From NCBI RefSeq assembly GCF_014127105.1, contig NZ_CP059902.1, positions 1,893,001 to 1,957,000 on the forward strand: DNA of 64,000 nt. Reading direction: 5' to 3'. Below are positions 5,256-13,915 of this stretch, one piece after another. The notes beneath the pieces were generated by a model. The model was not told the origin of the DNA and ran no database searches. It worked only from the letters and a program-made list of their open reading frames with translations. Every line of letters begins with the position of its first letter. The first letter of the stretch is position 1. The position numbers and the translations under genes are program-made. The DNA comes from Devosia sp. MC521 (GTDB lineage: Bacteria > Pseudomonadota > Alphaproteobacteria > Rhizobiales > Devosiaceae).

Positions 5256-5339
5256 GTAAGCGGTGTCCTACCTCCACCTTCCATGCTGGTGTCGGCCATG
5301 AGATTGCGCACTGATTGATGTCAGTGCGGGAGTTTCTCC

Positions 5340-5729
5340 ATGGACGCTCCAATGGAGCTTCTCACAAACAGCGCGGGACGGCGTCGCAACCGGCAATGGC
5401 CCGATGAGGTGAAGGCGCGGATTGTCGCCGAAACGCTTCGGCCAGGGGCGACTGTCGGTCAAGTTGCGCAGCGACATGGGCTGAAGGCCAACCATCTGTC
5501 GTCGTGGCGGACCCTCGCCCGGAATGGGAAGCTGGTGCTGCCGGCTCCGGAAGGCCCTGTTGAGTTTGCGAGTCTAATGGTCGCTCCGGTTGAGGAGGTG
5601 ACGGCCGAGGAGCCGTCGGCGTCGGCTGGGCCAGAGATTGTGTTGGGGGCGGTGTCCATCCGCTTGGAGCCGGGTGCTCCGGCGAGCCGGATTGCCTCGG
5701 TTGTACACGCCCTGATGGCGACCTCATGA
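5340..5729 (+). CDS. tnpA: IS66 TnpA (OrfA), DNA-binding helper protein
   Basis: Protein of 129 residues with the N-terminal helix-turn-helix typical of IS66 OrfA: the WPDEVKARIVAETLRPGATV stretch followed by QVAQRHGLKANHLSSWR. It is the first gene of the IS66 operon and ends in a 4-base ATGA overlap with tnpB, indicating translational coupling. An alternative start at 5352 is possible. IS66 transposition needs TnpA, TnpB and TnpC together (family knowledge). Confidence 0.93.
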   Translation: MDAPMELLTNSAGRRRNRQWPDEVKARIVAETLRPGATVGQVAQRHGLKANHLSSWRTLARNGKLVLPAPEGPVEFASLMVAPVEEVTAEEPSASAGPEIVLGAVSIRLEPGAPASRIASVVHALMATS

Positions 5730-6079
5730 TCTTTCCTTCGAACCGGGTGCGGATCGTGGTGGCGACCAAACCCATCGACTTCCGCAAAGGCCACGACAGC
5801 CTGGCCGCTTTGGTGAAGAACGAGCTGCACAAGGACCCGTTCACGGGAACGGTCTTTGTGTTCCGTGCCAAAAAGACCGACCGATTGAAGCTGCTCTACT
5901 GGGATGGCACCGGACTGGTTATGGCCTACAAGCGACTGGAAGAGCACAGCTTCACTTGGCCTGCGGTTAAGGACGGACTGATGACACTCAGCCACGCGCA
6001 GTTCGAGGCCCTGTTCTCCGGACTCGACTGGCGGCGGGTTCGGGCCGTTGCAGCCAGGGCTCCAGAAGCCGTGGAATGA
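5726..6079 (+). CDS. tnpB: IS66 TnpB (Orf2-like) accessory protein
   Basis: Protein of 117 residues matching the IS66 Orf2 family: VATKPIDFRKGHDSLAALV near the N-terminus, then GTVFVFRAKKTDRLKLLYWD and GLVMAYKRLE. Its length is normal for the family. It starts inside the stop of tnpA. It is required with TnpA and TnpC for IS66 movement, but its biochemical role is not known. Confidence 0.95.
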   Translation: MIFPSNRVRIVVATKPIDFRKGHDSLAALVKNELHKDPFTGTVFVFRAKKTDRLKLLYWDGTGLVMAYKRLEEHSFTWPAVKDGLMTLSHAQFEALFSGLDWRRVRAVAARAPEAVE

Positions 6080-6149
6080 CTGCGGCAGGATGACTCAGGG
6101 CTTGTCTTTTTGCGGGCATGCCGGCGCCTGATCTGCTAGGGTTCTGGTC

Positions 6150-7694
6150 ATGCTCGAGACCGCCGAACTTCCCGACGATGTTACCGCCCTCAAGGCGATG
6201 CTCGTCGCGGCGGAGGCGCGCAATCAGCGCAAGGATGAGCGGATCGCACAGCTGGAAAAGCTGGTCGCAGCGTTCAGGCAAGCGGCCTTCGGGCGCAGGT
6301 CGGAAAAGAGCGATCCGGACCAGTTCGAGCTGGCGCTGGAGGATCTGGAAACAGCCATCGCGGCAGTCCACGCCGAGGAAGATGCAGAGGATCGCGCGGC
6401 CCGGCGGTCGGCCAAACCGCGCAGCACCAATCGTGGTTCGCTCCCCAAGCACCTGCCGCGGATCGAGGAGATCATTGAGCCCGATAGCCTGATCTGTGGC
6501 TGCGGCGGCGGTCTGCACTGCATTGGCGAGGACGTCTCCGAGAAGCTCGATGTGATCCCGGCCCAGTTCCGGGTGATCGTGACCCGTCGCCCCAAATATG
6601 CCTGCCGATCCTGCACGGACGGTGTGGTGCAGGCGCCGGCGCCCGTTCGACTAATCCCTGGCGGGCTCCCAACTGAGGCCATGGTCGCCCATGTTCTGGT
6701 CAGCAAATACGCCGACCACCTTCCGCTCTATCGCCAAGCGCAGATTTACAGCCGCCAGGGTATTGATCTGGACCGCTCAACACTGGCCGATTGGGTCGGT
6801 CGGGCCGCCTTCGAGCTGCGTCCGGTCTATGACGCCCTGCTGGCGGACCTCAAACGGTCCTCAAAGCTGTTCATGGACGAAACCCGCGCTCCGGTGCTTG
6901 ATCCTGGAGCCAGAAAGACCAAAACCGGATACTTCTGGGCCCTGGCCAGAGACGAGCGTCCCTGGAATGGCACCGCACCACCCGGTGTTGCCTTCACCTA
7001 TGCCCCTGGCCGAGGTGGTCTTCATGCCGAACAGATATTGCAGGGCTTCGGCGGCATCCTGCAGGTGGATGGCTATGCCGGCTACAACCGGCTGGTCTCG
7101 CCCAGCCGTGTCGGCGCGGGTATCCAGCTCGCCTATTGCTGGGCCCATGCGCGCCGCAAGCTGATTGATATCACCCGCACTGGTCCTGCGCCGATCGCCC
7201 AAGAGGGGGTGCGGCTCATCCGCGAACTCTACGCCATTGAGGCCGATATCCGAGGCCGGGGCCCGGATGACCGCCTCGCCGTGCGCCGGGAGCGGTCAGC
7301 TCCAGCCCTGGCGCGGATAAAAGATTGGCATGATCACCATCGCAGGCGCGTCTCGCCAAAAGCGCCGCTCGGGGAAGCATTGAGCTATATCGCCAAATAC
7401 TGGGCTGGGCTCGAGTTGTTCCTGACCGATGGGCGCATTGAGCTCGACAACAATGCTGTCGAGCGGACCATCCGTCCCATCGCACTGAATCGGAAGAACG
7501 CGCTCTTTGCCGGTCATGATACCGGTGCTGAGAACTGGGCCGTCATCGCCTCGCTGATCGAAACCTGCAAGCTCAACAGCGTCGATCCCAACGCCTGGCT
7601 GGCCGCGACACTCCACGCCATCGTCACCAGACATAGGCAGAGCCGCATTAACGAACTGCTCCCGTGGAACTATCCTGCCATCGTGGGTGATTGA
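6150..7694 (+). CDS. tnpC: IS66 TnpC, DDE transposase
   Basis: Transposase of 514 residues. A coiled N-terminal leucine-rich part (about residues 1-50) is followed by a Cys-rich zinc-finger-like segment (CGCGGGLHC ... CRSC). The IS66 catalytic core comes next: LFMDETRAPV (first Asp), LQVDGYAGYNRL (second Asp) and IELDNNAVERTIRPIALNRK (Glu). The C-terminal helical domain FAGHDTGAENWAVIASLIET is also typical. Full length, with no frameshift. It lies 70 bases after tnpB in the same direction. Confidence 0.96.
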   Translation: MLETAELPDDVTALKAMLVAAEARNQRKDERIAQLEKLVAAFRQAAFGRRSEKSDPDQFELALEDLETAIAAVHAEEDAEDRAARRSAKPRSTNRGSLPKHLPRIEEIIEPDSLICGCGGGLHCIGEDVSEKLDVIPAQFRVIVTRRPKYACRSCTDGVVQAPAPVRLIPGGLPTEAMVAHVLVSKYADHLPLYRQAQIYSRQGIDLDRSTLADWVGRAAFELRPVYDALLADLKRSSKLFMDETRAPVLDPGARKTKTGYFWALARDERPWNGTAPPGVAFTYAPGRGGLHAEQILQGFGGILQVDGYAGYNRLVSPSRVGAGIQLAYCWAHARRKLIDITRTGPAPIAQEGVRLIRELYAIEADIRGRGPDDRLAVRRERSAPALARIKDWHDHHRRRVSPKAPLGEALSYIAKYWAGLELFLTDGRIELDNNAVERTIRPIALNRKNALFAGHDTGAENWAVIASLIETCKLNSVDPNAWLAATLHAIVTRHRQSRINELLPWNYPAIVGD

Positions 7695-7748
7695 CGCTGT
7701 TGGCTCTGGCGGCATAGTCAGAAAACCACCAGCAACGAGGCCCCTCCC

Positions 7749-8021
7749 ATGAACGATCAAGACCACCCTAACCTGGTCACATCAGGAAAAAGCCAGCGGG
7801 TAGTGGTCGAAGGTTATGCCTTCTTGATCAATATCCATCGGCTCGAAACGGACGATACCTGGACCCTCGAGGTCGTGGACCACCACAACGACAGCCACGT
7901 CTGGGACAATCAGTTCCAGACCGACAGCGAGGCGCTTGACGCTGCCTTGAACGCACTGAACAGCGAGGGAGCCGGCGCCTTTATGCGCGGCAACAACGTC
8001 GTGCAGTTCCCGCGACCCTGA
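7749..8021 (+). CDS. Small IS66-borne passenger protein
   Basis: Hypothetical acidic protein of 90 residues inside the IS, between tnpC and the right end. It has a plausible start after a gap of 54 bases and an even, folded-looking composition (TWTLEVVDHHNDSHVWDNQF). I cannot assign a domain. Some rhizobial IS66 elements carry a short ORF in this place, so it is probably part of the element rather than host DNA. Confidence 0.6.
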   Translation: MNDQDHPNLVTSGKSQRVVVEGYAFLINIHRLETDDTWTLEVVDHHNDSHVWDNQFQTDSEALDAALNALNSEGAGAFMRGNNVVQFPRP

Positions 8022-8049
8022 ACCTAAGTGGCCGCAGAACACCGCTTAC

Positions 8050-8057
8050 CTCTGTTC
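8050..8057. repeat. Right target-site duplication of IS66 element
   Basis: CTCTGTTC immediately follows the right inverted repeat and is identical to 5248-5255. Confidence 0.95.
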
Positions 8058-8141
8058 TGTCGGTTAGCTTGATGCTTCGCCCAGATGGCTGGCACAACGG
8101 CGAATAGACATATCCGGTACGCGCCTGGAGTAGGCATATGC

Positions 8142-8207
8142 CCCTCACCGGAATGTCGCTCTCCGAATGAGGCATCACCGACAACTGAAAATGTCCCTCA
8201 CCGCAAT
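8142..8207. repeat. Pair of 13-bp direct repeats
   Basis: CCCTCACCGGAAT at 8142-8154 and CCCTCACCGCAAT at 8195-8207 differ in one base and lie 53 bases apart. Short repeated transposase-binding motifs like this occur near the ends of IS21-type elements, so this may be a leftover IS end. No transposase reading frame remains next to it. Confidence 0.4.
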
Positions 8208-8323
8208 AGACCTCTTCTACCGATTGATGCGTCTCCTCTCCCCACTTCAAGGCCGGGAATTTGAAGGTACAAAATCCCGAACAGCCAAGATATCGGTGTC
8301 CCTCCGAGCCGGCCTGCTACTTG

Positions 8324-8692
8324 CTAAACCGGGTTGCGCACAATGTATCTCCCGAGGTCGTTCAAAGCTGCCAACTCGGCCTGCTCTGACGCCCACTTCG
8401 CAAAATTGGTCATGGTCCCCCTGTGAACATGGTATCGCACGTGCTTGCCGTCACGCGTGGTTTCGAGCACCCCTGCATCGACTAGCAGCTTGAAGTGATG
8501 CGACATAGTCGATGCCGATTTTTCGCTTTTTCAGGTCAGAAGACGATAATCCGACCGCCTGCTGAACCTTTCGAAAAATATCGAAGCGTGTAGAATCGCC
8601 AAGCGCCGTAAGGACTTTTAGGGCTTCGTCATCGGTCGATTCGAAATCCTTCGACGCTTTTTCCGTTTTATCGCCCAGGTGCCATTAACCAT
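8324..8692 (-). pseudogene. ArsR-family transcriptional regulator, frameshifted
   Basis: The minus strand encodes an ArsR-type winged helix in two frames. The upstream part reads EALKVLTALGDSTRFDIFRK and continues to KKRKIGID. The downstream part reads MSHHFKLLVDAGVLETTRDG and ends at 8324. The break is near 8507, where one extra base separates GID from the recognition helix MSHHFK. The upstream part also has no start codon in its own frame: the only sensible ATG, at 8692, is in a different frame, so a second shift near the 5' end is likely. ArsR proteins repress metal- or stress-response genes; this copy is most probably dead. Confidence 0.75.
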
Positions 8693-9103
8693 TCTTAACG
8701 GTTTGCGATGACGGCCGGGATCGCTTGATGCATCCTGCTTTCAGGACTCCGCCCGGATTCCCGGTTGTCATCAAGGCAGCCGCCAGAGTTGCGTCAACAA
8801 CTCCAGCGGCCTGACCAGACGACCTTACCTGCGCAAACAGGAGTGGCCGAATGGCTATGCTCATCTATCGCGGCGATTGGATTCGCTGCAACTCCCTCCC
8901 TGATATTTTCGATGACGGTAACAGCTGGCTTGCTCCTCGCAGCAACTCGGCGCGCGCTAAGCGCTAGCCCCCGCTTCCGTCGATCATGCTGCTGACCCTC
9001 GCGAGCCCTGCGCTCGCATGAACCCGGCTGCGTGGTCCGTCCCAAAACTCTGCCTGCTTGCCGTCCGCACCCTCGGACCGGCTTGCGCTGGAGTCTGTCG
9101 AAA
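8693..9103. other. Intergenic region upstream of the ATPase/nuclease pair
   Basis: About 410 bases with no convincing gene on either strand. It must contain the promoter for the AAA ATPase/CoiA-like operon. I do not see an unambiguous -35/-10 pair or operator. Confidence 0.35.
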
Positions 9104-10162
9104 ATGTCCAAATCTGCAAAAAATGCGCTGCCACCGGCAACGCCACCTCTTGAGTTTGACGATCCTGCCGATCTTGGCGATGGCCCCAATCCCGTGGAAC
9201 GCCTGCTCAATGACGCAGAGCTCGACACGCTCAACCGCACAGCAGTGGGGCGTCCTCGCATGCTTTGGGGATCGGATACGGCTTTTGTCCGTCTCAGTCC
9301 TGAACCGGACCCGTCCGCATATAGCGGAAAGCGCAGCGATCGCGGGCCCGATTTTCGCGCCATCGAGATCGCCCGCGCGCTGAGTGACCCTCTGGCTCTC
9401 AAAGGCCCGGCAAAGGCTCACGCCATCGACGAGCTGGTCGCAACCGTCTTCGAGGCGGCTCCAAATTTTGCCCGGCCGCTCGAAGCGATCCGGCAGAGTG
9501 CGCAGTCCATGGTGCGCCGGGGCGCACCCCACTTCCAGTTCAAGCCGATCCTGATCGAAGCACCACCTGGGTGTGGCAAGACTACGATGGCGATGCGCCT
9601 GGCTGCGGCCAGTGGGCTGCCGGCGCTTTATCTCGACGCCACCGCCATGACCACCGGCACGCCGATCGTCAGTGCAGACAGCGTCTGGAGCCATGCCCGG
9701 CCTTCCGAAGTTGTGCAGTTCCTGGCGAACGAGCAGGTGGCCAATCCAATCATCATCGTCGACGAGTTCGACAAGCTGCAAAACCTCTCGGCGCACGCCC
9801 GGTCCGATGCCACCGAGATCATGCTGCCGCTTTTGCAGCGCGACACCGCGGCCGCGCACGTCGACCATTTCCTGCAATCCAGAGTCGATCTCAGCTTCAT
9901 CAACTGGATTCTGCTCTGCAATGACCTCAATCGCATCGCCAGGCCCGTCCGCGATCGCTGCACCGTCATTCGTCTCAATGCGCCGGACGTCGATGAGATT
10001 GCCGAAATCGCCCGGCGCGAAGTGCAGCGCCGCGGCCTGCCCGACGAGCTTGTCGCGCCGCTGATCCGCGCCGTCCGCACGGGCCGCCTCACCTCGCTTC
10101 GCAAACTCCACAAAGCCCTGGACCGCGCCGATGCGGCAGCGACCCGCCCTCTTCTCAACTGA
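9104..10162 (+). CDS. AAA+ ATPase, Lon-like ATPase domain without protease
   Basis: Cytoplasmic ATPase of 352 residues from the ATG at 9104; a longer in-frame start at 9032 exists but adds only low-complexity sequence. Walker A is APPGCGKT (about residues 153-160) and Walker B is IIIVDEFD (about 216-223). A sensor-1 segment WILLCNDLNRI and an arginine-finger-like RPVRDRC follow. The order and spacing resemble the AAA+ module of Lon proteases, but there is no Ser-Lys protease domain. The N-terminal about 130 residues are unlike anything I recognise. Thirty-three bases downstream, in the same direction, is a CoiA-like nuclease, so the two probably work together. I infer an ATP-driven partner to the nuclease, possibly in defence or element maintenance. 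Confidence 0.8.
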   Translation: MSKSAKNALPPATPPLEFDDPADLGDGPNPVERLLNDAELDTLNRTAVGRPRMLWGSDTAFVRLSPEPDPSAYSGKRSDRGPDFRAIEIARALSDPLALKGPAKAHAIDELVATVFEAAPNFARPLEAIRQSAQSMVRRGAPHFQFKPILIEAPPGCGKTTMAMRLAAASGLPALYLDATAMTTGTPIVSADSVWSHARPSEVVQFLANEQVANPIIIVDEFDKLQNLSAHARSDATEIMLPLLQRDTAAAHVDHFLQSRVDLSFINWILLCNDLNRIARPVRDRCTVIRLNAPDVDEIAEIARREVQRRGLPDELVAPLIRAVRTGRLTSLRKLHKALDRADAAATRPLLN

Positions 10163-10195
10163 TTTCTTGATAAAACGCAAAAAAGGACGCAGACC

Positions 10196-11590
10196 ATGAA
10201 CAAGACCATCCAGCTTCGCGCCATCGAAACCGTCACCGACACCACGATGCCTCCGGGCCAGCAGGTCCGTCTGGCCCGAAATATCCTCGATCCTCTGACA
10301 GAAGTTGGGCTTAGCGAACTCCGGGCCGATGTGCGCACGGCTTATGTCGCCGGTCATCCGCGCTTTCGGTGCCCCGGCTGCAACGAGCCTTTGTTTGTTG
10401 CCCAGAATCCGGCATCCGCGAACACCCCGCGTGACGGCCGGGGTGCGCACTTCAAGCATCATGCCAACGTGGATGCCCCACCCTGCCGGAAACGCACCGC
10501 TGCAAATCTGCACGACATCGGTGCAGTCAAGTTCCCCGGGCTGGGCGAAGGCGCTGACCATTCCAATCTCAAGCACATGCTAGCCTTCTGCTTGTCGCAG
10601 GATCCCAACGTCACGGACATTGAGGTCGAACGCCAGATCAGGGCGCTCGACGGCTCCTGGCGCCAGCCTGACGTGAGCTTCGTGCTCGACGGCCAGGCCG
10701 TGGCGGTCGACGTGCAACTGGCGGCCGCGTCCCTCGCGACCATTCTCGAGCGGGGCACCTTTTACGCGGCCAACAAAATCCGTCACATCTGGGTTACGGA
10801 TACCGCTGACCTCGACCGCCTGAGTCAGCTGGCCTTCCGCGACAGTTACCTCAATATGGGTGGCCGAATCTTTGCTCTCGACGCCGACGTCGTCGCCGCC
10901 TGCGTCGAGCAGAGCAGGTTCCAGCTCTGGGAACTGAGCATCATGCCCAGGCTTGCCCCGCCCCTGCCCCTGCACAACGTCTGGGAACGCGACGTGGTTG
11001 ACCAGGAGACCATCCTCATGGATCCGGCAGCGCGCAAGGCGGAAGGGCAAAAGCGCTATCGCCGGTCTTTGGCCAGCCAGGTCGGCCAGCATTTTGGCCC
11101 TCAGCGGGCATCCATGCGCGCGGCTCTTGCCGAGGGCAAGCCGCTCGAATGGATGCGGCCGGAATGGACAACGATCGCGCGTCAGATCAAGGGCCGAGAT
11201 ATCGACACCGCGATCACTCAGGGCGTTGGTGCGGTTCTGGCTTGGTTGTATGCGGCGGAAGCCTATGCATCCTGCGCCGAACCCACGGCACGCCCCGTGG
11301 CCCTCGCCGCAATGCATCAGGCGACCGCAACCGTGCTGACCATTCGTAACGCCAAGGACTGGGCGCCGCTGGTGGAAACCGTGTGCACGATGTCGCCTCC
11401 GGTTCAGGCTGCGCTTACCCCCGATCACCGCGACCAGCTCAACACGTTGCTCACGACCGCCGAGCCCACAACATCGGTCATTCGCAACCACGCCCAGATG
11501 CTATCGGTGCTGTTTCCCTGGGTCGCCTTCAAGCTGCTGGTCAAGGCGCCAAAGTTCGGCCCCTCGATCAACCGCCGCAACTCTCACTAA
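10196..11590 (+). CDS. CoiA-like PD-(D/E)XK nuclease-family protein
   Basis: Protein of 464 residues. An N-terminal zinc-binding-like segment contains CPGC (Cys 59 and 62), HFKHH (85-89) and Cys 97. This is followed by DHSNLKHMLA and a restriction-endonuclease-like core: DIEVERQI (Glu 143/145), RQPDVSF (Asp 159) and VAVDVQ (Asp 172, Gln 174). This order matches competence protein CoiA and related DUF6035-type proteins. The ExK motif is the variant DxQ. The C-terminal 200 residues are helical and unassigned. A strong AAGGA precedes the ATG, and it is the second gene of an operon with the AAA ATPase. A role in natural competence is doubtful, because the gene sits in an island near an integrase. 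Confidence 0.7.
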   Translation: MNKTIQLRAIETVTDTTMPPGQQVRLARNILDPLTEVGLSELRADVRTAYVAGHPRFRCPGCNEPLFVAQNPASANTPRDGRGAHFKHHANVDAPPCRKRTAANLHDIGAVKFPGLGEGADHSNLKHMLAFCLSQDPNVTDIEVERQIRALDGSWRQPDVSFVLDGQAVAVDVQLAAASLATILERGTFYAANKIRHIWVTDTADLDRLSQLAFRDSYLNMGGRIFALDADVVAACVEQSRFQLWELSIMPRLAPPLPLHNVWERDVVDQETILMDPAARKAEGQKRYRRSLASQVGQHFGPQRASMRAALAEGKPLEWMRPEWTTIARQIKGRDIDTAITQGVGAVLAWLYAAEAYASCAEPTARPVALAAMHQATATVLTIRNAKDWAPLVETVCTMSPPVQAALTPDHRDQLNTLLTTAEPTTSVIRNHAQMLSVLFPWVAFKLLVKAPKFGPSINRRNSH

Positions 11591-11601
11591 AAGAGAAGAG
11601 A

Positions 11602-11968
11602 AGCAGCCCGGGACATTCCGATGTCGCAGGCTGCTGGCATCTGTTTACTCCGCTCGACAAGCTCGGGGTAAACAGATGCCAAAGAGGCCGCCAAAGGCGG
11701 CCTTCTCCGGGACAATAAGAAAGAAAAGAGAAGAAAGAGAAAGGGGGCGCCCGCGCGCGTCCTTGAGAAAGAGGCATACCAGCACAGAGGTTGACGCCAG
11801 ATCAGGCCGCCTACCCTTCCCCCAACCAGCTCCATCGGAGCTGGTCTACGCCGAAGGCGATGAGCGGCCTGATCTGGGGTCAAGGCCAGCTCAAGGCTCC
11901 AGTTTCCAATGCATGCGCAGCATAGCGATAGCAGACCCCCTATCCCGTCCAAGCACTAGCTGGACGGG
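11602..11968. repeat. Cluster of five inverted repeats in a gene-free region
   Basis: (1) AGCAGCC 11602-11608 with GGCTGCT 11629-11635, enclosing GACAT/ATGTC. (2) Arms of 18 bases at 11635-11652 and 11664-11681 with one mismatch and an 11-base loop. (3) GGCCGCC 11686-11692 with GGCGGCC 11696-11702. (4) Outer arms of 20 bases at 11791-11810 and 11864-11883 with one mismatch, enclosing a perfect inner ACCAGCTCC (11825-11833) and GGAGCTGGT (11837-11845). (5) CCCGTCCA 11944-11951 with TGGACGGG 11961-11968. Such density is well beyond a single terminator. It could be a structured RNA or a DNA site used by the island. Confidence 0.75.
11686..11705 (+). terminator. Probable terminator of ATPase/nuclease operon
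   Basis: GGCCGCC-AAA-GGCGGCC followed by TTCT, about 95 bases after the stop of the CoiA-like gene. Stem of 7 GC-rich pairs with a 3-base loop; the T-tract is short, so efficiency is uncertain. Confidence 0.5.
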
Positions 11969-12296
11969 TCCATCCCTGCGGGCATTTGAAAGTGGAAGAG
12001 CTGGCCGTACTTCTGAGCGACACACGGTAAGGAAATACTCTTTCCAATCCAACGAGCAGAAAAAGACCATGTTATAACAAAGACTTCGCTTCAATTTGTG
12101 AAAAATCCACAAGGGCGAGAATCGCAAGTCTAAAATTGTGTCAGGAAGGCAATTTCTCGATGTTTCTACAGACTTTTCTGCAGGAGGGTCCTTGCTCGGG
12201 AAAAAAGAGCAAGTCCACCAGTGCATACCACCCTACAACTTCGCGACGTCGAGAAGACGAATTCTTTAACTACCTACCCCAAGGCAACTTGAAGCC
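11969..12296. other. Gene-poor region before the integrase module
   Basis: About 330 bases with AT-richer composition than its neighbours and no supported gene. It probably holds the promoter for the small DNA-binding protein and the integrase. Confidence 0.4.
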
Positions 12297-12572: not shown

Positions 12573-13730
12573 ATGGGACGCGGCACGCCACGGCACTACA
12601 AGCTAAAACGAAATAATCGCGCGTTCTGGGAACCGACCGCGACTATGAAAGCGCATGGCTTTGTGTCGGTTCCTCTCGGCCCGCACGGACCGGACGCCTT
12701 TAGAACTGCTGAGGAGTGGAACCAGCGCTGGGATGATACCCGGACCGGCAAGCACCCATCGCCAGCTGCAAGTCGCGAACAGAATCTATCGCCGGAGCGG
12801 GCAGAAGAACTCACGGTCTATCCCTCCGGGAGCCTGGGCGAGGCATTCAAGGGTTTCCGCGGAACCGACGAATGGGCCAAAAAGGCTCCAAGAACACGCG
12901 AGGACTGGTGGCGTGCATGGAAGCAAATCAAGCCTGTCTTCGGCGATGTACGCCCCAGCCGTGTCACGCTTGTGACTATCAGCGCCTTTAGGTCCATGGT
13001 CGAGCGCAAAGTAAGCCTTCGAGAGGCTCATCGCGTAATCAAGATATGGCGTGCGCTATGGAAGGTTGCGGCCGCTATGGGCTACTGCGTCCGTGACGCT
13101 GATCCATCCATGGGCGTGCGTAACGACGCTGCAAAAGGCCGAAAGGAGACTTGGCAAGAGGGTGAGGCTGTTCGTCTGGCGAAGAGGGCATGGCGCATGG
13201 GCTTCTTTGGCCTTTCCGCCGTAATAGCTGCTGCCTGGGACACACAACTCAACCCTGGCGATATTCGTCTGCTGACAGCTTCTCAGCTAGCAACGGCTGG
13301 TCACGGAGAACTCTTCTTCACTGAGCGTGGGAAGACCGGCAAGCCCGTTGGAGGAGCTTTGAGCATCCGGTCAGTCTTCGTGCTTCAGTCATACCTAACC
13401 CAGCTAGGCGTGGAGCTCCACGGCGATGCGCCGGTCTTTCGGAATCGTTCGGGCCAGCCCTATAGCAAAGACACGTTGGGTGATGATTTCCGCGATGTTC
13501 GCCGCGCTGAATTTGGAAAAGAAGAACGTCGAACGCTTGGCCACGACTTCCGGCGCTCAGGAGCTGGCGAGGCCATTGTCGGTGGCGGAACAGCCGAGGC
13601 TCTGTCCCACGCTATGGGGAACACGCTGAGCGCATCTAACACGCTGTTCGCTACGTACGTTCCAGTAAACGCAGAGACGATCCGTTCCGTCTCCGGGGCC
13701 CGCAGGCGCGGCAGGGCCAAACTGCGGTAA
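12573..13730 (+). CDS. Tyrosine recombinase / phage-type integrase
   Basis: Integrase of 385 residues. The N-terminal core-binding domain covers about residues 85-190. The C-terminal catalytic domain carries LGHDFRRSGA (HxxR), LSHAMGN (second His) and the nucleophile in LFATYVP. The first catalytic Arg is less clear; the usual ARxSE-like motif reads AWDTQLNPGDIRLL, where the expected Arg is not obvious. The gene runs toward a tRNA-Asp whose 3' end is 108 bases downstream, the classical arrangement for an element integrated into a tRNA 3' end. Full length and open. Confidence 0.85.
   Translation: MGRGTPRHYKLKRNNRAFWEPTATMKAHGFVSVPLGPHGPDAFRTAEEWNQRWDDTRTGKHPSPAASREQNLSPERAEELTVYPSGSLGEAFKGFRGTDEWAKKAPRTREDWWRAWKQIKPVFGDVRPSRVTLVTISAFRSMVERKVSLREAHRVIKIWRALWKVAAAMGYCVRDADPSMGVRNDAAKGRKETWQEGEAVRLAKRAWRMGFFGLSAVIAAAWDTQLNPGDIRLLTASQLATAGHGELFFTERGKTGKPVGGALSIRSVFVLQSYLTQLGVELHGDAPVFRNRSGQPYSKDTLGDDFRDVRRAEFGKEERRTLGHDFRRSGAGEAIVGGGTAEALSHAMGNTLSASNTLFATYVPVNAETIRSVSGARRRGRAKLR

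Positions 13731-13838: not shown

Positions 13839-13915
<77 letters not shown>

What the first reader, a model, noticed from the sequence alone, without database searches (positions are those of the whole stretch)
9104..11590. Two-gene unit: Lon-like AAA+ ATPase plus CoiA-like PD-(D/E)XK nuclease on an integrated island
The sequence shows an intact Walker A/B ATPase without a protease domain, and 33 bases later a protein with zinc-like Cys/His motifs and a D159...D172-x-Q174 nuclease core. Known CoiA proteins act in natural competence, but here the gene sits in an island with an integrase and no competence genes. ATPase plus nuclease pairs on islands are a recurring architecture of phage-defence systems. 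I infer this is a defence or element-maintenance module that may not yet be described. The variant DxQ in place of ExK leaves activity open.
Basis: partly seen in the sequence, partly recalled or inferred. Interest (0 to 1): 0.75.

Follow-up and report, generated by a model that had tools for sequence, protein, structure and literature searches.

The report
Mobile ATPase–nuclease unit with RNA
A soil bacterium carries a small travelling set of genes, a motor protein and a DNA-cutting-type enzyme, followed by an unusual folded RNA that is not in the RNA catalogue, which suggests an undescribed RNA-linked nuclease system.

Summary
The two genes are real and correctly described: a Lon-type AAA+ ATPase module without protease (9104-10162) and, 33 nt on, a CoiA/DUF6035-type nuclease (10196-11590). 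They are part of something larger. In Devosia they form a bounded unit: a conserved leader from a TTAACCAT box (8685) with a short ORF (8851-8967), the two enzymes, and about 430 nt of conserved 3' sequence holding a structured RNA (core 11786-12017). The RNA has 56 predicted pairs, 34 with two-sided changes (0 of 500 shuffles as many) and no Rfam match. All 16 testable near-complete nuclease genes have it. ATPase, nuclease and RNA evolve together (r 0.81-0.90) and not with the host (r about 0); flanks differ between copies. The ATPase was found in 19 of 136 family genomes, always next to the nuclease. In two genomes a second RNA copy follows a metallophosphoesterase gene beside the operon; longer Lon-like ATPases have such a gene nearby in 7 of 10 Devosia loci examined. 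My reading is a horizontally moving conflict module in which the RNA gates or positions an ATPase-driven nuclease. Function is inferred, not shown; a self-mobile element and a cargo operon with a cis-acting 3' element are the main rivals.

The parts
8685..8850 (+). conserved 5' leader, starting at a TTAACCAT box, with hairpins and a Shine-Dalgarno-like AGGAG
   Evidence: 8680-9110 folds at z -4.5
8851..8967 (+). short ORF, 38 codons, first about 14 codons conserved; whether it is translated is unproven
   Evidence: found in 17 of 18 loci; weak coding signal pN 0.24 / pS 0.36
9104..10162 (+). Lon-type AAA+ ATPase module without protease domain
10196..11590 (+). CoiA/DUF6035-type zinc-finger-like PD-(D/E)XK nuclease with an extra helical C-terminal domain
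11591..12030 (+). conserved structured 3' region; 11591-12035 folds at z -9.26
11786..12017 (+). core of the structured RNA (model R1), two long arms each with side hairpins, 56 predicted pairs
12573..13730 (+). tyrosine recombinase of the island, next to tRNA-Asp (13839-13915, -); context, not part of the conserved unit
5256..8049 (+). separate IS66-type element with its own end repeats; context

Best explanation
It is a horizontally transferred module made of a leader with a short ORF, a proteaseless Lon-type ATPase, a CoiA-type nuclease and a structured 3' RNA. Shown by computation: the parts, their limits, the RNA fold, near-obligate linkage, shared descent and horizontal spread. Inferred: the ATPase forms a Lon-like ring that couples ATP hydrolysis to remodelling or loading of the nuclease; the RNA, transcribed with the operon, binds this complex through its invariant loops and keeps it inactive or positions it (an RNA-gated nuclease); a trigger such as invading phage or plasmid DNA releases it to cut nucleic acid, protecting the host or the island that carries it. 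The leader and short ORF control expression.
For: Adjacent in 19 of 19 genomes with the ATPase. RNA just downstream of 16 of 16 testable near-complete nuclease genes (17 places; one, G031, ends at its contig edge; RNA places); R1 was built largely from these copies, so this is a statement of presence and not an independent validation. RNA in 1 (G007) of 116 genomes without any nuclease match. Covariation: 95.5% of cells paired vs 80.6% shuffled, 34 pairs with two-sided changes vs 20.0, score 0.431 vs 0.150, 0/500 shuffles as high; sliding partners by 1-3 columns destroys it. G-U cells 39 vs A-C 13, so the sense strand is the likely folded one. 3' region 88-89% identical in close copies whose nuclease dS is 0.60-0.84. 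Mantel r: nuclease-ATPase 0.90, RNA-nuclease 0.85, RNA-ATPase 0.81, all p 2e-4; against host Lon -0.01, -0.07 and 0.07 for nuclease, RNA and ATPase. Catalytic and Walker residues invariant. A CoiA domain occurs in one of 21 experimentally selected E. coli defence systems (PMC9519451, passages and one section read). A phosphoesterase linked to related ATPases matches the candidate defence model PDC-S10 at 1.1e-15.
Against: No activity of any part is shown. PADLOC has no confident model for either protein (best 0.0019 for the ATPase, none for the nuclease) and neighbours are not clearly defence-rich. RNA-protein binding is inference; the RNA could be a cis-acting mRNA element. A copy of the RNA also follows a phosphoesterase gene in two genomes, so it need not be nuclease-specific. 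Solo DUF6035/CoiA-like genes outside Devosia show no comparable 3' structure (8 loci, 16 windows, all z > -2), so the nuclease family does not need such an RNA in general. G007 keeps an RNA without the pair. In L019 against L037 the 3' region (88% identical) is little slower than nuclease dS (0.28), and ATPase dS is 1.2, so parts recombine.
Confidence: 0.4

Rival explanations
1. Self-mobile element: the ATPase and nuclease are the machinery that moves the unit, and the leader and 3' structure are its cis-acting ends, acting as RNA or folded single-stranded DNA.
Against: No transposase, reverse transcriptase or terminal inverted repeat was seen in the unit; no target-site duplication or clean empty site was found; three nuclease fragments lack the RNA; tyrosine recombinases often lie near and could do the moving. 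The sharp limits may simply be promoter and RNA end.
Confidence: 0.25
2. Ordinary cargo operon: a nuclease-ATPase operon of an integrative island whose 3' element only stabilises or regulates its own mRNA, and whose leader regulates expression.
For: The RNA lies directly 3' of an operon and on its strand; it also lies 3' of a phosphoesterase gene, as a shared 3' regulator would; leader and short ORF look regulatory.
Against: It is unusually large and elaborate for such an element, has invariant unpaired loops, and remains in copies whose genes are broken or gone.
Confidence: 0.27
3. DNA-uptake protein: the nuclease works in natural transformation as CoiA is named for.
For: CoiA_nuc match over cut-off.
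Against: Patchy (19 of 136 family genomes with the pair), horizontally spread and island-borne; fold and domain shared with a phage-defence locus.
Confidence: 0.04

Closest known systems
Lon protease (LonA/LONP1) ATPase module
   Different: no protease domain, no long N-terminal substrate domain, fixed partner is a nuclease
CoiA / DUF6035 proteins
   Same: zinc-finger-like N-part, PD-(D/E)XK core with [D/E]xQ; Pfam matches over cut-off
   Different: extra helical C-terminal domain, ATPase partner and 3' RNA; the plasmid DUF6035 genes read are mostly solo, some near SIR2, AbiJ, AAA or EVE genes
CoiA-domain defence system of E. coli (Vassallo et al. 2022, PMC9519451)
   Same: a CoiA domain in a phage-defence locus (passages and section 7 read)
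   Different: sequence relation not tested; the passages read mention no Lon ATPase or RNA with it
Lon-like ATPase with metallophosphoesterase nearby (Devosia, Microvirga, Ketogulonicigenium)
   Same: homologous ATPase core, with another metal-dependent phosphoesterase close by
   Different: ATPase is 519-555 aa in the Devosia loci and 556 aa in Microvirga; no significant R1 RNA; no nuclease of this type found
Type III toxin-antitoxin and other RNA-regulated enzymes (recalled)
   Same: an enzyme operon with a structured RNA
   Different: no tandem RNA repeats here; the RNA lies 3' and is about 230-430 nt
R2 retrotransposon endonuclease
   Same: zinc motif plus PD-(D/E)XK fold (recalled), weak Foldseek match
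   Different: no reverse transcriptase in the unit

Membership tests
Lon protease | Lon-type AAA+ module | tested here: met
Lon protease | C-terminal Ser/Lys protease domain | tested here: not met
   the 352 aa protein ends at the lid, where LONP1 735 lies; no protease domain in the Pfam list
CoiA/DUF6035 | Pfam domain over curated cut-off | tested here: met
   DUF6035 30.0 vs 22.6 bits, CoiA_nuc 28.3 vs 20.3 bits
CoiA/DUF6035 | PD-(D/E)XK-type fold with conserved catalytic residues | tested here: met
CoiA/DUF6035 | role in natural transformation | not testable with these tools
   needs experiment
Known anti-phage defence system | match to a described system's protein models | tested here: not met
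   PADLOC best 0.0019 for the ATPase, none for the nuclease; the library dates from 2023
Known anti-phage defence system | located among defence genes | tested here: inconclusive
   105 of 133 listed neighbour ORFs of 14 loci: methyltransferase models in 3-4, specificity subunits in 2 (25 of 135 families shown); integrases in 5 (25 of 126 shown)
Known anti-phage defence system | protects against phage | not testable with these tools
   needs plaque assays
Rfam RNA families (release 15) | match above the gathering score | tested here: not met
   in the window stretch only tRNAs reach it; best match over the RNA is E 0.85 in the window and 0.096 in L019, both far under gathering score
DDE-type insertion sequence | terminal inverted repeats and transposase | tested here: inconclusive
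   no pair joining the unit ends among the 25 longest of 29 inverted repeats; neither protein is a transposase
Type III toxin-antitoxin | RNA antitoxin made of tandem repeats | tested here: not met
   only two short arrays, both inside the genes

The most novel reading that the evidence does not exclude
A new class of mobile ribonucleoprotein nuclease systems, so far seen only in Devosia: a proteaseless Lon-type ring and a CoiA-type nuclease operate with a dedicated, undescribed two-armed RNA that gates or directs cutting, and the same RNA can be paired with a metallophosphoesterase, so that the RNA would be an exchangeable part of a modular system.
Probability: 0.3. Interest if true: 0.92.

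Novelty: categorically new. Interest (0 to 1): 0.78.

Why it matters
A strongly covarying RNA of over 200 nt with no Rfam match, tied closely to an ATPase-nuclease operon that moves between genomes, is a direct handle on a possible new kind of RNA-linked nuclease system. It also links proteaseless Lon-type ATPases to different metal-dependent phosphoesterases, suggesting that Lon-type rings have been reused as motors for nucleases. The testable question is simple: does the RNA bind and control these enzymes?

Tried and rejected
The DxQ site as a sign of inactivity: rejected, residue 172 is D or E and Q174 is invariant. The unit as a passenger of the upstream IS66: rejected, that element has its own end repeats at 5256 and 8049, although some ATPase relatives on plasmids lie beside IS66-type genes. 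Phage carriage: no protein match in the phage collection and none confirmed in one scan of IMG/VR; an RNA pattern gave 3 IMG/VR stretches that look like chance, at most 6.7 bits with R1 and inside long ORFs. RNA outside Devosia: 387 order genomes gave, besides six of the window's genus, three weak matches of 21-24 bits (strict filters); 19 plasmid loci gave nothing under E 4. Structured 3' ends after ATPase relatives on plasmids: some windows in L112 and L113 reached z -3 to -5; not followed up. ORFs downstream of the nuclease that looked like a third gene (11676-12077 and others) lie in the RNA region and 11676-12077 has no Pfam match. Empty-site search for the L019 copy: G000 has relatives of both flanks 4.6 kb apart without the unit, but the similarity stops about 470 bp short of the 5' junction and about 600 bp short of the 3' junction, so it decides nothing. 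Likeness of TTAACCAT to CtrA sites is recalled and untested. The integrase list was cut, so I give no integrase count per copy. The C-terminal helical domain was not folded alone; one VIA list is dominated by the nuclease domain.

The alignments A1 to A4 use rows trimmed to the query's start, so some rows do not begin at the true start codon; L022/L038 is cut by its contig end. A1 has 14 and A2 13 rows; copies with a broken ATPase were left out of A2 and A4. A7 is not a true alignment but a container for scanning 105 of 133 listed neighbour ORFs. The ten loci with longer Lon-like ATPases were picked from the listing, not drawn from all genomes.

Full report

The pair is a unit. In 136 family genomes the ATPase profile (E at most 1e-35) hits 19 and the nuclease profile (E at most 1e-6) hits 20, all in the window's genus. 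In all 19 the two genes are adjacent in the same order (coordinates). The 20th, G375, has only a C-terminal nuclease remnant. One extra ATPase fragment lies at a contig edge (G009:C21). Some copies have a broken ATPase (G012, G359) or broken genes (G381, G385). In 397 order genomes 15 have a nuclease-profile match, 6 of them of the window's genus; the other 9 match only within the first two thirds of the profile. On plasmids, 13 records match. I read 8 neighbourhoods: by annotation none has an AAA ATPase directly adjacent; Azospirillum has one two genes upstream, which my ATPase profile did not detect.

It is larger than two genes. Comparing flanks showed conserved DNA outside the genes. Upstream, conservation begins at a TTAACCAT box, 419 bp before the ATPase in the window (8685), and includes hairpins, a Shine-Dalgarno-like site and a short ORF found in 17 of 18 loci, 25-51 aa, alike mainly in its first 14 codons. 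Its coding signal is weak (pN 0.24, pS 0.36). Downstream, about 430 bp after the nuclease stop are conserved. For L027 against L028, L029, L040 and L047 the similarity starts at the same base, the one before the TTAACCA box, and it ends near +450; against L025 it starts 22 bp later. Beyond these limits copies at different places share little, apart from loci that look orthologous (L028, L029, L047 and partly L040; L021 and L037) and some shared regulator or integrase genes.

The 3' part is a structured RNA. The window's 445 nt fold at z -9.26 against 100 shuffles. A 22-sequence alignment (A6, including five remnant copies and one copy beside a phosphoesterase) yields 56 pairs, of which 34 have changes on both sides. 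Controls: 95.5% of cells paired vs 80.6% shuffled, covariation score 0.431 vs 0.150, none of 500 shuffles as high, and sliding by 1-3 columns drops pairing to 34-43%. Related sequences can beat such shuffles without structure, and the structure was derived from the same alignment, but the two-sided counts are large. G-U cells (39) exceed A-C cells (13), which points to the sense strand. Copies with nuclease dS of 0.60 to 0.84 still share 88-89% of the 3' region; in L019 against L037 the contrast is small (88% identity, dS 0.28). Rfam has no match near its thresholds.

The RNA goes with the pair. Model R1 hits 18 of 136 family genomes. Of 17 near-complete nuclease genes (the G012 one shows a stop at the edge of the aligned stretch), one (G031) ends at a contig edge; the other 16 all have the RNA just downstream. 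R1 was built largely from these copies, so this is presence, not independent proof. Of the 116 genomes without a nuclease match, one (G007) has the RNA (132 bits). The RNA was not found beside the frameshifted nuclease of G381. Five partial copies keep the nuclease C-terminus plus the RNA; three fragments lack it. In L031 and L149 a second RNA copy directly follows a metallophosphoesterase gene that runs away from the operon (Pfam); L151 has weaker RNA hits beside such a gene. G020 has a strong extra copy (213 bits) next to integrases; weak hits exist in G012, G029 and G021.

Descent. Over 13 genomes nuclease and ATPase distances correlate at 0.90, and RNA distances (for those of the 13 with an RNA in A6; 12 by my count, the number was not printed) at 0.85 and 0.81 with them, p 2e-4 each. 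None correlates with the host Lon protein (nuclease -0.01, ATPase 0.07, RNA -0.07; p 0.48, 0.25, 0.70). The parts thus travel together between strains, though the L019-L037 pair shows that they also recombine (ATPase dS 1.2, nuclease 0.28). Both genes are under purifying selection (dN/dS 0.10-0.20, five pairs each).

A wider family of Lon-type ATPases. I examined ten Devosia loci with longer Lon-like ATPases (519-555 aa), picked from the listing. Seven have a metallophosphoesterase gene nearby, one of them broken, as do a Microvirga plasmid (adjacent) and a Ketogulonicigenium plasmid. None of the ten nor the Microvirga locus has a significant R1 match (best 7.6 bits). One such phosphoesterase (L188) matches the candidate defence model PDC-S10. 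This suggests, by inference, that Lon-type motors have been paired with different metal-dependent phosphoesterases.

How it may work. The anatomy is a probable ring-forming motor, a cutting enzyme, and an RNA with long arms and invariant loops. I judge an RNA-gated or RNA-positioned nuclease used in conflict with invading DNA most likely (0.4). A self-mobile element (0.25) is favoured by the sharp limits, multiple copies and fragments that keep the 3' end, but no transposition hallmark or empty site was found. A cargo operon with a cis-acting 3' element (0.27) remains open. Neighbours do not settle it: integrase domains in 5 and methyltransferase models in 3-4 of 105 scanned neighbour proteins, from capped lists.

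Literature. DUF6035 occurs in one paper of the library, on another subject by its title and abstract start. CoiA with nuclease and anti-phage: four papers listed; in PMC9519451 (passages and section 7 read) a CoiA domain is in one of 21 selected defence loci. CoiA-like with defense gave two papers, unrelated by title. Searches for metallophosphoesterase with AAA, noncoding RNA and defense island (108), Lon-like ATPase with metallophosphoesterase (130), Devosia with structured RNA (131), and CoiA with AAA ATPase, integrase and noncoding RNA (138) found no paper. My statement that this combination is undescribed rests on these searches and on the libraries; most subscription journals and all preprints are missing from the paper library.

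Noticed in passing
L031 5270-6409 (-) and L149 1755-2884 (+): A metallophosphoesterase gene directly followed by its own copy of the same RNA, divergent from the ATPase operon.
   Followed up: partly
L183, L184, L185, L186, L187, L188, L190; L181: Longer Lon-like ATPases (519 aa and more) with a metallophosphoesterase gene nearby; possibly a separate undescribed system without this RNA.
   Followed up: partly
L113, L114, L117 (Paracoccus, Martelella and Ketogulonicigenium plasmids): ATPase relatives beside IS66-type genes, with DUF6634 proteins in L113 and L117 and metallophosphoesterases in L117.
   Followed up: partly
window 8324-8506 (-): Possible remnant of an ArsR-type regulator; the DNA here is similar to a stretch upstream of the L027 copy where an HTH_20 gene lies. 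It has no Pfam match of its own.
   Followed up: partly
window 8685-8699: TTAACCATTCTTAAC at the start of the unit resembles a CtrA binding site (recalled); TTAACCA is upstream of the ATPase in 13 of 14 loci scanned.
   Followed up: no
L033 (G030:C178) 6728-9344: Integrase of the window's family with a nuclease C-terminal remnant plus intact RNA beside it: a decayed unit in a related island.
   Followed up: yes
L060-L067: DUF6035/CoiA-like genes on plasmids lie near SIR2, EVE, AbiJ, UvrD, AbiEii-type, reverse transcriptase or Tn7-like genes, so this nuclease family may be defence-linked elsewhere.
   Followed up: no
G000:C1:204487-205577 (L034): Second, broken copy (nuclease C-terminus plus RNA) in the same genome, next to transposase-like genes.
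   Followed up: yes
L112 and L113, downstream of the ATPase relatives: Some 260-nt windows fold unusually well (z -3 to -5); possible diverged RNAs.
   Followed up: no
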